This document shows positions 2,367 through 7,507 of a stretch of DNA of 64,000 nucleotides, piece after piece. Below the pieces are notes generated by a model. That model worked only from the letters and a program-made list of their open reading frames with translations. It made no database searches and was not told the DNA's origin. A program made the position numbers and the translations under genes. Source of the stretch: Xestospongia bergquistia (lineage: Eukaryota > Porifera > Demospongiae > Haplosclerida > Petrosiidae); assembly GCA_963965975.1 (NCBI GenBank), contig OZ014413.1:9450101-9514100 (forward strand), written 5' to 3'. Position 1 is the first letter of the stretch; each line of letters starts with the position of its first letter.

Positions 2367-5300
2367 ATGGCGTCAGGAGATGTTGTGGTGGAGAAAGTAA
2401 CTTTAGAGCAAGTGAAAGCAGCTGAAGATAAAGTGAAAAGTTTAAGGAAAGAAGGAGCTGCTAAAGAAATAGTAAGAGGGTCTGGAATGTATTTTTAACT
2501 CCTTGTGACCAATCAGATTATAGTACTTTAATTGATGTCATGTGACCAGTTCTGGTTCTGATAATTACTGTCTTGAATGGCTAAATTATTGAGAAGGGTT
2601 TCCAGACTGAGGGTGGGGTCTAAGAAATTATATAACATTTATTATATATATTTCCTTTTTCTTCATTCTATAGCTTGATGAAGCTATAGATAAGTTACGT
2701 ACTTTAAAGGTAAAACTTGGAAATGAGGCTCAGTTGGGTCAAAGTTTTGTACTCAAATGTCCGAAAGTAAGTTTCCATTTAATTGCCACCTTGTATTTTG
2801 TTACTTATAACAGAACTAATATATTATGTAATATTATGTAATATTATGTAATAATTAATGTGTTGTAGTCATGTGATATATAAAATTAATCAATGATATT
2901 AGCCTCAAGTCTTGTATGTTATTCCGTTACTAAAAATAACCTAACTTCTAAAATTAGTATCACTTTATAATGATGTTATTATGAACAAATCTGAATAATA
3001 ACAAGTCCTAAAATATAGCACAAAATCTTATAAATATGTCTTCTTGGATATAGTATTTTTAACATGAAGTCATCGGTGAGCTATTACTATTTGGACAACA
3101 GCATAAATTGGCTTCCTGTTATAAATAACACCATTTTAATGTAAAATTCACTATTGGAAGAAAAGTCTATATATAGCTTCTTGTTACAAAATTTAGAACA
3201 ATTGATTATTACTCATAGGGTACTCGAGACTATGACCCATTTCAAATGGCTATCAGAGAGAAGGTCTTTGATACAATAGTTGGTTGTTTTAAACGTCATG
3301 GTGCTGTTACTATAAGTACTCCAGTATTTGAATTAAAGGAGACATTAATGGGAAAATATGGAGAAGACTCTAAACTAATTTATGATCTTTCTGATCAAGG
3401 TGGAGAGCTCCTATCACTTCGCTATGATCTAACTGTATCCTATATATGAATAGTCAATAGTGATATTTTAGGAGTAAATAATGATATTTTTCTATTAGGT
3501 AAGTTCTTTATATACAAGTTTAAAATGATGTCATATAATATAATAGTTAATATTTATACTAGTAGATAAGCAACTATGATCTACTAAACAAGAGTATGTT
3601 AAGACTTGTAAACACTCAATAGTTCCATATATCACATCAACAATGTACTAGCTTATTGTTGATATAACTCACAGTTATTGTACAATACTGACATAAGTAG
3701 TATTGACCTTCTCTTTCATATCATGAGCTCAATATAGTTATTATAATATTGTATAAAGATCTAATAAAACAATGACAAATTTAATAGTTCCAATATTTAT
3801 CATACATTATAATACATCACACATTATAGTAATATGTTTATATATTATGATCATTTACATGTACATGTACATTATAACACAGTTATTAGACAGTGTTATA
3901 TACTAGTTCAGTGTGTAGTCCTTGATCAATACATTGTACTGCACTGCAATATAGATCATCATCAACTTGTAGAAGATAACTATTGATATGTGATGTGTAG
4001 TCATGGGTGGCACAAACCATCTCTGAGCATAATCCTTGATCAATAGCCTCTACTGCACTGCAATATAGATCATCATCAACTTGTACAGGATAGCTATTGA
4101 TATGTTGTGTGGAGTTATGAGTATTAAATACCATTTGAGAACATAATCCTTGATCAACTGCTTGTTCTGCATGACAATATTGACTCTCTTCAACTATACC
4201 AGATCAAAAAGAATACTTGTTAGAAATGATCTATTAATTATTAATTCTATAATTACCTGTATAATTATAGTACACTGAAGTCACTGAAATCATCTTTTTT
4301 TTTCCACTGCAAACAGTCTGCCCTCTAATGTTTAGATAGAACAACCACATATATGGTCATTATGAATATATGTCTAACAACATGTCATGAATATTCATAT
4401 AATGTGGTTTCCTATCCAAGCATTAAACTTAGGCCAATGCATTCTTTTTATAATATCTTGTTATAATATATTATAGTACACTGAAGTCATCCCCTTTTCC
4501 CACTGCAAACAGTCTGCCCTGTAATGTTTAGATAGAATGTGGCTTGGTGATATATGACTTGCATTCTTTTTATAATATCTTGTTATAATATATTATAGTA
4601 CACTGAAGTCATCCCCTTTTCCCACTGCAAACAGTCTGCCCTGTAATGTTTAGATAGAATGTGGCTTGGTGATATATGACTAGCAAACTTCTGTGTGCAA
4701 CTATGAATATTCATATATAATGCAGCAATGTTAGCAATTATAAATATTCATATAATGTGGTTTCCTATCCAAACATTAGAGGGCAGACTGAAACCAATGC
4801 ATTCTTTTTATAATGTCAGTTCTACCATATTATATCAATGTATTATTTTGGTGATTTATTATACAGTATATATTATATTACTGTTATTGTATATTACATG
4901 ATATTAAATCTTGTAATAGTTAGTGTGTGTGTTTGTCTGTTTTCTTTGTTATCATAGTAAGTAGTACATTTCAAAAACTATACATTATATACCAATAAAC
5001 TTAATATAAAATATACAGGTACCATTTGTTATATTGTAACACTGTACAGTCCTTAATATAACTTGTTATATTGTAACACTGTGCAGTCCTTAATATAACG
5101 TGTACAGGTACCATTTGTTATATTGTAACACTGTGCAGTCCTTAATATAACGTGTACAGGTACCATTTGTTATATTGTAACACTGTACAGTCCTTAATAT
5201 AACATGTACAGGTACCATTTGTTATATTGTAACACTGTACAGTCCTTAATATAACATGTACAGGTACCATTTGTTATATTGTAACACTGTACAGTCCTTA

Positions 5301-7507
5301 ATATAACATGTACAGGTACCATTTGTTATATTGTAACACTGTACAGTCCTCAATATAACATGTACAGGTACCATTTGTTATATTGTAACACTGTACAGTC
5401 CTTAATATAACATGTACAGGTACCATTTGTTATATCGTACAATCCTTAATATAACATGTACAGGTACCATTTGCTATATTGTAACACTGTACAGTCCTTA
5501 ATATAACATGTACAGGTACCATTTGCAAGATATTTAGCTATGAACAAAATTAAACAGATGAAGAGATATCATATAGCACAGGTATATAGACGTGATCAAC
5601 CAGCTATGACAAGAGGAAGATATAGAGAGTTTTATCAATGTGTAAGTTAATAATTAGAATAAGACAACTGTTGATTGTAGTCATGTGACATATACCACAC
5701 CCACTATTTTTATGATCTATTATTTGTACTAGTTTATTTTGTTTAATAATAGATAATGTTAAAATATTGTTATGTTTTGTTATTATAACAATATTTGTAT
5801 TATTTAGGACTTTGATATTGCTGGTGAATATGATCCTATGATACCTGATGCTGAGTGTGTTAAGATAATGGTAGAGATCCTCAGTGAATTACAACTAGGA
5901 GAATTTAAAGTTAAAGTAAGTTATAATATAATGTGTTATGATCTTGTTTAACAAGACTATACAGTTATTGATATATTAGTAAGTGAACTACTCAGAAACC
6001 TAGAGGGACAAAGCCATCAATTAGAGGACCTGGTTTATATTGCTATTATAGACTATTATAGTAACTAAAGATAGGACTATACTATACTTGTATCAACTAT
6101 ATATTGTGTAATAGTAAACTGGTGCATTAAATACATCACATGACACATTATATCATACTACTGTATTATATATAATGATATATATATAATATTAAATATA
6201 ACATTATATTATAACTATAAATATATATTAATAGTATACTAATAATATACTAATAATATACTAATAATACTAATAATATACTGATATATTGTTACTATAT
6301 ATAGATCAATCATCGTAAAATCTTAGATGGTATGTTTGCTGCCTGTGGTGTACCACCTGATAAATTTAAACCAATCTGTTCAGCTGTTGATAAACTAGAC
6401 AAAGTAAGTCACTTTGTTTAGAGGTAGGTGTGTCTACTGATGACTTTTGACCTTTAGACTCCATGGGAAGAAGTACGTAAAGAGATGATAGAAGATAAAG
6501 GACTTCCTATAGATGTGGCTGATCTGATTGGTGGATATGTTAAATTACATGGCGGGAAAGATCTAGTAGATAGACTTAGTCATGATGATAAGTTATGTTC
6601 TCAGACTACATTCAAATCTGGACTGGATGAGTTGAAGTTATTATTTGAATATTGTGATGTTATGGGAGTATTAGATAAGGTAAATTATATGAATGGATGA
6701 ATGGATGGATGGATGGATGGATGGATGGATGGATGGATGAACTAACTAACAAATGGACTAATTGTTAAAGTATATTTTTCATTCCTCTAGTTATCATTTG
6801 ATCTTAGTCTAGCTAGAGGTCTAGATTATTATACTGGTATTATTTATGAGGCAGTACTTACAGGAGGTACATATACTAACACATGATAATCATGTGATCA
6901 TATCTCTCTCATCAGGTGATGTTCCAAGTGCTAGTTCTAAATCTAGTGATACTCCTTCAGTAGGTTCTGTCTCAGGAGGTGGACGTTATGATGAACTAGT
7001 AGGTATGTTTGATACCAAAGGAAGAAAGGTATGTATTATATCAAGTTACATAATATATTAATATATTGTAATGTTAATAATAATATCATTATAATGTAGT
7101 ATATATTATATGTAATAGGTTCCATGTGTTGGATTTAGTATTGGAGTAGAGAGAGTGTTCTCTATATTAGAAGCTAAAGCTAAGGTATAAACTGACTTCG
7201 TTACACATAGTTACTTTACTAAAGAAGACTAGATCACACATAACAAAATATAGTTAACTTAGAAGACAGAACACTGATCTGTACCATGAAGTGTTATGAG
7301 TTCATTCCACATTTTATTTCTTTATCTATCTAATGTTGTTTATATTGTCTAGTCTGGAGTTATGGGACAAGTACGAACTATTAATACTGAAGTGATGGTA
7401 GCATCTGCTCAAAAGAACTTGTGTCAAGAGAGACTGAGAATATGTAGTCTGTTATGGGATGCTGGAATTAAGGTAAGACACTGTTATTATAATATTTGAT
7501 TATATAT

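What the first reader, a model, noticed from the sequence alone, without database searches (positions are those of the whole stretch)
5011..5527. A minisatellite made of a splice acceptor and the first codons of HARS exon 4
Seen: each 52-bp unit repeats ACAGGTACCATTTG, identical to the real intron 3/exon 4 junction at 5512-5525 until the true exon continues with CAAGATATTT. The intron therefore presents about ten copies of its own 3' splice site before the real one. Use of any earlier copy would add GTA CCA TTT GTT ATA TTG TAA, i.e. stop after six codons. Inference: the array grew by duplication of an exon edge and may compete with, or tune, HARS splicing.
Basis: partly seen in the sequence, partly recalled or inferred. 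Interest (0 to 1): 0.8.

Follow-up and report, generated by a model that had tools for sequence, protein, structure and literature searches.

The report
Repeated splice acceptor in a histidyl-tRNA-synthetase intron
An intron of an animal histidyl-tRNA-synthetase gene ends in a tandem array that repeats its own 3' splice site nine times before the real one, and the site looks like the rare kind read by the minor (U12) spliceosome, which makes it a natural test of how cells choose between near-identical splice sites.

Summary
At 5011-5525 a 52-bp minisatellite carries nine exact copies of ACAGGTACCATTTG before the true HARS intron 3/exon 4 junction at 5512. Use of any copy gives a stop after six codons (eight of nine) or nine codons (one). 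New here: the intron looks U12-type. Its donor is GTATCCTAT, GTATCCT being kept in three array-less HARS paralogs, and the genome encodes U11, U12 and U6atac. Eight of nine decoys also carry branch-point-like TCCTYAAT 14 nt before the AG, so a whole minor-type 3' splice site seems to be repeated. Genome-wide, 38 of 42 copies of the 14-mer lie in four HARS-linked arrays; three abut exon 4. It is not a dispersed satellite here, and the exon edge came first, since array-less paralogs have it. Birth at the junction, then copying with HARS duplications, is well supported. An effect on splicing is untested: there are no RNA data, and arrays beside broken HARS copies keep the same core. Closest precedent: the human F7 intron 7 donor repeats. 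A new variant of a known kind.

The parts
2367..7843 (+). HARS gene, 13 exons, open 518-aa frame (exons 2367-2471, 2674-2766, 3219-3434, 5516-5641, 5808-5915, 6305-6403, 6458-6679, 6791-6866, 6916-7028, 7119-7184, 7353-7472, 7575-7721, 7778-7843)
   Evidence: exons placed by eye, joined, read through in one frame; Pfam PF13393 1.6e-41; cytoplasmic histidine-tRNA ligase 4g85 8.9e-212
3435..3443 (+). 5' splice site of intron 3, GTATCCTAT, 8 of 9 to the U12-type consensus GTATCCTTT (consensus recalled)
   Evidence: the other 11 introns of the gene score 3-6 of 9
5011..5511 (+). 52-bp minisatellite with nine decoy acceptors (ACAGGTACCATTTG at 5015, 5104, 5156, 5208, 5260, 5312, 5364, 5416, 5460)
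5050..5450 (+). branch-point-like copies in the array: TCCTTAAT at 5050 (37-bp unit, no AG of its own), 5087, 5139, 5191, 5243, 5295, 5399, 5443; TCCTCAAT at 5347
5495..5502 (+). putative U12-type branch point TCCTTAAT of the true acceptor; 14 nt from its second A to the intron end
5512..5525 (+). true intron 3/exon 4 junction (ACAG|GTACCATTTG), exon 4 from 5516
9866..10375 (+). second array, after a HARS exon 8 fragment (9591-9647); no exon 4 beside it
19563..20229 (+). third array, running into a broken HARS exon 4 copy (deletion after GTACCATT)
26259..26380 (+). HARS exon 4 copy without array and with an altered 5' end

Best explanation
Shown: HARS intron 3 begins with GTATCCTAT, and its last 42 nt plus the first 10 nt of exon 4 form a unit repeated in tandem. 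Inferred with good support: the intron is removed by the minor (U12) spliceosome, and the array arose at the junction by tandem duplication of this acceptor, then spread only as a passenger in duplications of the HARS 3' half. Inferred, weaker: the U11/U12 di-snRNP could bind any of the branch-point copies, eight of which serve decoys, but the last acceptor is mostly used because it defines the shortest exon (126 nt, against 178 to 534 nt for the complete decoys) with the intron 4 donor. Leakage to decoys gives early-stop transcripts that are probably degraded, so the array is a tolerated load that may slightly lower HARS output.
For: Donor GTATCCTAT in the window gene and in paralogs P1784 and P1802, GTATCCTTG in P1791: GTATCCT in 4 of 4 copies examined, although intron lengths run from 444 to 2081. 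TCCTTAA lies before the AG in the window gene, P1784 and P1802, and TTCCTAAAC in P1791. U12, U6atac and U11 each gave one match over the Rfam cut-off among the candidates scored. The U12 match carries GAGTAAGGAA, complementary to TCCTTA. Abnormal processing of U12 introns of HARS is reported in RNPC3 patients (PMC7612377, passages; which intron is not said there). 38 of 42 genome copies of the 14-mer are in four HARS-linked arrays, as are 21 of 22 hits of the intronic part. The exon edge is present without array in three paralogs. Stretches of the intron upstream of the array recur before two of the other three arrays.
Against: No RNA evidence for any site. Pairing of U12 snRNA with the unit's branch point is modest: -6.5 kcal/mol, reached by 4.6% of 20,000 random window 17-mers, and four other introns of the gene reach stronger values. 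The spacing of 14 nt is just above the quoted optimum of 11-13 (PMC3584512, passage). Tandem TCCTTAA minisatellites also exist elsewhere, for example 58-60-bp units on C4, C5, C6 and C11, so the motif alone is not special. Single diverged relatives of the unit stand at 11873-11904 and 16544-16581 without exon 4; I take them for relics, which was not tested.
Confidence: 0.6

Rival explanations
1. One reading: decoys compete strongly with the true acceptor, and array length sets how much productive HARS mRNA is made (splicing to a decoy, early stop, decay).
For: The decoys match the true site in the AG and the first ten exon bases, and seven of nine also carry the identical TCCTTAAT at the same 14 nt. 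All nine lead to early stops. U12-type 3' splice-site choice is described as error-prone (PMC3584512 section 13). The array of the intact gene is the most uniform of the four (4 of 364 cells differ from the consensus, against 7 of 364, 18 of 572 and 14 of 416).
Against: In F7 only the most upstream donor of the repeat series is used normally (PMC6627357 passage). The ten exon bases are as constant in the arrays beside broken HARS copies, and within the unit the branch-point columns vary no less than the rest (10 of 264 against 30 of 990). Further HARS copies lie on the same contig and might buffer it; their intactness was not tested.
Confidence: 0.2
2. Neutral minisatellite: a by-product of slippage in a structure-prone unit, with no measurable effect on splicing. 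(It overlaps with the best explanation, which allows a small load.)
For: The same array persists in three loci with broken or partial HARS. Tiled units fold somewhat better than tiled shuffles (z about -2.1; 9 of 300 shuffles as low for three units). The window is rich in tandem repeats (130 TRF rows, some overlapping).
Against: Nothing local distinguishes seven of the nine decoys from the true site, so zero use would need an explanation.
Confidence: 0.35
3. Recursive removal: a decoy is used first, the new junction ACT|GTACCA serves as a donor, and splicing steps along the array to the true exon.
For: Each interval runs from AG|GT to AG|GT with GT...AG ends, 44-89 nt long; introns of 49, 54 and 56 nt and a GTACAT donor exist in this gene.
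Against: GTACCA is a poor donor and no longer U12-type; the true exon 4 would regenerate the same donor. No direct evidence.
Confidence: 0.05
4. A dispersed satellite that happened to land at the exon edge.
For: Other minisatellite families in this genome share TCCTTAATATA.
Against: The 14-mer and the intronic part are confined to four HARS-linked arrays apart from isolated hits. Three of the four isolated 14-mers were read and have no unit around them; the C6 one was not read. Three of four arrays run exactly into exon 4.
Confidence: 0.04

Closest known systems
Human F7 (factor VII) intron 7 37-bp repeats
   Same: A series of near-identical repeats, variable in number, whose first member holds the real splice site of the neighbouring exon and whose others offer copies (PMC6627357 passage).
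   Different: F7 repeats a donor downstream of its exon; here an acceptor, probably U12-type and with its branch point, is repeated upstream of its exon. Repeat number varies in F7; here it is unknown.
USSE, the tandem U12-type 5' splice site in U11-48K and U11/U12-65K genes
   Same: Repeated minor-spliceosome recognition motifs, linked to isoforms that are degraded (PMC3584512 section 13).
   Different: USSE repeats the donor, activates an upstream U2-type 3' splice site and is conserved; here acceptor and branch point are repeated and no regulation is shown.
Internal tandem repeats at exon-intron boundaries of human genes in segmental duplications
   Same: Minisatellite expansion over an exon boundary in recently duplicated genes, with splice changes (PMC2812944, part of abstract and passages).
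   Different: Those cases concern novel introns with transcript support; here a pre-existing acceptor is multiplied and no transcript is at hand.

Membership tests
U12-type (minor) intron | 5' splice site close to RTATCCTTT | tested here: met
   GTATCCTAT, 8 of 9; other 11 introns 3-6 of 9; GTATCCT in 4 of 4 HARS copies examined
U12-type (minor) intron | branch point close to TTCCTTAAC, short distance to AG | tested here: inconclusive
   GTCCTTAAT is 7 of 9, 14 nt from the intron end, but intron 10 also has a 7-of-9 word and pairing energy with U12 snRNA does not single out intron 3
U12-type (minor) intron | no polypyrimidine tract | tested here: inconclusive
   10 of 20 pyrimidines at -23..-4; the other 11 acceptors have 9-20 of 20
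U12-type (minor) intron | genome has a minor spliceosome | tested here: met
   U12, U6atac and U11 over Rfam cut-offs; U4atac and the proteins not searched
U12-type (minor) intron | splicing depends on U12 snRNA | not testable with these tools
   needs RNA from cells
splice-site minisatellite of the F7 kind | tandem units each hold a copy of the adjacent exon's splice site | tested here: met
splice-site minisatellite of the F7 kind | only one end copy of the series is used normally | not testable with these tools
   no RNA data
splice-site minisatellite of the F7 kind | copy number varies between individuals | not testable with these tools
   one assembly held
dispersed satellite | arrays at many unrelated loci | tested here: not met
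   four arrays, all HARS-linked, in this genome

The most novel reading that the evidence does not exclude
An array of U12-type branch point/acceptor modules acts as an adjustable decoy for the minor spliceosome: when U11/U12 activity or transcription speed changes, the balance between the real acceptor and the decoys shifts and sets how much full-length histidyl-tRNA synthetase is made, with copy number as the dial.
Probability: 0.12. Interest if true: 0.85.

Novelty: new variant of a known kind. Interest (0 to 1): 0.58.

Why it matters
How the minor spliceosome picks one 3' splice site has few natural tests; alternative splicing of U12-type introns is described as almost entirely absent and its 3' site choice as error-prone (PMC3584512 section 13). 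Here eight near-identical branch point/AG pairs stand in a row before the real one in a gene for an essential enzyme, so position and context must decide. Counting the junctions in RNA would measure that rule directly.

Tried and rejected
Pairing test against U12 snRNA first used the wrong strand of the locus; those energies are void and were redone.

Structure: a 162-nt stretch of the array folds far better than shuffles (z -4.48), but shuffling destroys the periodicity; against tiled shuffled units z is only about -2.1 for two, three and six units and -0.97 for one. The last branch point is the most open one in three settings, but so it is in 58 of 60 versions with shuffled flanks, with a median ratio above the observed one (2.2 against 1.5): an end effect, no argument for selection. 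The true AG is less open than most decoy AGs. A rotation-based palindrome test of the unit was negative (22 of 52 matches, shuffles mean 26.8).

Selection: among 33 full-length units (of 41; 8 of other length dropped) the ten exon bases differ in 1 of 330 cells, ACAG in 2 of 132, the branch-point word in 10 of 264 and the other 30 bases in 30 of 990. By array, 4 of 364 cells differ in the intact gene, 7 of 364 at 9.9 kb, 18 of 572 at 19.6 kb and 14 of 416 on C2. So the HARS array is the most uniform, but the consensus used is close to it, cells are not independent and the core is constant everywhere; I draw nothing from it. The TCCTCAAT variant is in 1 of 7 full units of the HARS array against 3 of 7, 5 of 11 and 1 of 8: too few.

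Uniqueness of tandem TCCTTAA: rejected, other families exist. The weaker hits on C4 and C11 are different minisatellites.

Species: recalled as sponge-like; among the best 120 of 6368 rows of the protein search none is near-identical, the sponge rows being Halichondria panicea 67% and Oscarella lobularis 68%, so no species is claimed.

Changes after the self-check: 'as well kept' for the other arrays was replaced by the counts above; the span of the lone unit and the wording on papers were corrected.

Full report
The window lies in a 146-Mb, 21-contig genome at G000:C3:9450101-9514100. A complete cytoplasmic-type histidyl-tRNA synthetase gene occupies 2367-7843 with 13 exons, placed by eye, and an open frame of 518 residues; Pfam and solved structures agree. 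The finding sits at the end of its intron 3.

Observation. ACAGGTACCATTTG stands at 5015, 5104, 5156, 5208, 5260, 5312, 5364, 5416, 5460 and, as the true junction, 5512. Of the nine intervals seven are 52 bp, one is 89 (it holds a 37-bp unit without the AG) and one is 44. If a decoy were used, exon 4 would grow from 126 to 178-623 nt, and translation would stop after six codons in eight cases and nine codons in one.

What is repeated. Intron 3 starts with GTATCCTAT. Against the U12-type donor consensus (recalled) it matches 8 of 9 positions; the other 11 introns match 3-6 of 9. Three further HARS copies at C3:1.78-1.80 Mb have intron 3 at the same place, 444, 503 and 1322 nt long, with donors GTATCCTTG, GTATCCTAT and GTATCCTAT and no match to the unit in the DNA fetched around them. 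Each has a TCCTTAA- or TTCCTAAA-like word shortly before the AG. U12, U6atac and U11 each gave one match over the Rfam cut-off among the candidates scored. Abnormal U12-intron processing of HARS is reported for RNPC3 patients (PMC7612377, passages only). I therefore read intron 3 as a minor-spliceosome intron. The branch point is the weaker leg: TCCTTAAT pairs with the genome's own U12 snRNA at -6.5 kcal/mol, a value reached by 4.6% of random window words and exceeded by four other introns of the gene, and intron 10 also has a 7-of-9 word. With this reading eight of the nine decoys are complete modules: branch point (seven TCCTTAAT, one TCCTCAAT), 14 nt, AG and the first ten exon bases; the first decoy (5015) lacks the branch point.

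Where else it is. The 14-mer occurs 42 times in the genome: 10 in this array, 7 in a second array of the window (9866-10375), 11 in a third (19563-20229), 10 at C2:8411522-8412100, and four isolated hits. Three of these four were read and have no unit around them; the fourth, on C6, was not read. The intronic part occurs 22 times, 21 in the same arrays and once alone at window 11878; a diverged single unit also stands at 16544-16581. The third array and the C2 array run into broken copies of HARS exon 4, and stretches of the intron upstream of the array recur before them. The second array follows a HARS exon 8 fragment and has no exon 4. A further exon 4 copy at 26259 has no array and an altered start. 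So, in this genome, the array is found only with duplicated HARS pieces.

Direction of origin. The exon edge GTACC(T/C)TTTGC exists in three paralogs without array and encodes the same VPFA there. The edge is thus older than the array, and the array was most likely made from it. The left border before 5015 (CTTAATATAAAATATACAG) already resembles the end of a unit.

How it probably works. For U12-type introns donor and branch point are bound together by the U11/U12 di-snRNP, removal is slow, and exon definition with flanking U2-type introns helps (PMC3584512, passages and section 13). I infer that the last acceptor, which makes the shortest exon, is mostly chosen and that decoy products are early-stop messages likely to be degraded. 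The F7 intron 7 repeats offer a mirror case: there an oriented process uses only the most upstream of several near-identical donors in the normal condition (PMC6627357, passage). None of this is shown for this gene; no RNA data exist in the tools.

For and against a function. The arrays beside broken copies keep the same ten exon bases (1 of 330 cells differs over all four arrays). The HARS array is the most uniform of the four (4 of 364 cells against 7 of 364, 18 of 572 and 14 of 416), which would fit selection or recent homogenisation alike. The branch-point columns vary no less than the rest (10 of 264 against 30 of 990). The greater openness of the last branch point is an end effect (58 of 60 shuffled-flank controls). 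Further HARS copies on the contig could buffer the load; whether they are intact was not tested, and exons 1-2 were found only in the window gene.

Novelty. Ten paper searches were run; some listings were capped (20 of 54, 12 of 14). No title listed is on a minisatellite made of a U12-type acceptor or branch point. Eight papers were opened by term search or section: three of them held nothing on the question (PMC13049632, PMC3778950, PMC2831892), PMC8329584 served as background only, and four are cited. The library lacks most subscription papers, so this is weak evidence of absence. I file it as a new variant of splice-site minisatellites.

Noticed in passing
window 9591-36451: Broken HARS 3' fragments (exon 4 onwards) are scattered through the window; a whole-genome search with exons 1-3 matched exons 1 and 2 only in the intact gene and exon 3 there and in three paralogs, so the duplications seem to start inside intron 3.
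   Followed up: partly
window 3886-4203 and 12981-13742, minus strand: Open frames antisense to HARS intron 3 and elsewhere encode 35-38-residue repeats such as DDDLYCSAVEAIDQGLCSEMV, in one case after a hydrophobic start; related DNA lies near several HARS fragments. Pfam: Tctex-1 at 3.3e-06 for the longer frame, above its cut-off but with no single stretch passing; nothing below 0.09 for the shorter.
   Followed up: partly
window 3487-3504: Inside intron 3, TTTTTCTATTAG|GTAAGT looks like an acceptor joined directly to a strong donor (recursive-splice-site-like), 64 nt after exon 3.
   Followed up: no
G000 C4:340295, C5:1333097, C6:7846250-7848344, C11:494471: A separate 58-60-bp minisatellite family with GTGTCCTTAATATAGAGGTT-like units on several contigs.
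   Followed up: no
window 37567-45558: Tandem-repeat rows recur 4129 bp apart with the same consensus (37567/41696, 37784/41913, 40812/44941, 41190/45319), pointing to a recent 4.1-kb tandem duplication.
   Followed up: no
window 55681-58457: Long compound array of units such as GGTGATGGTGACTCTTCAAATGATGATAGTGAA; if translated it would give Gly/Asp/Ser-rich acidic repeats.
   Followed up: no
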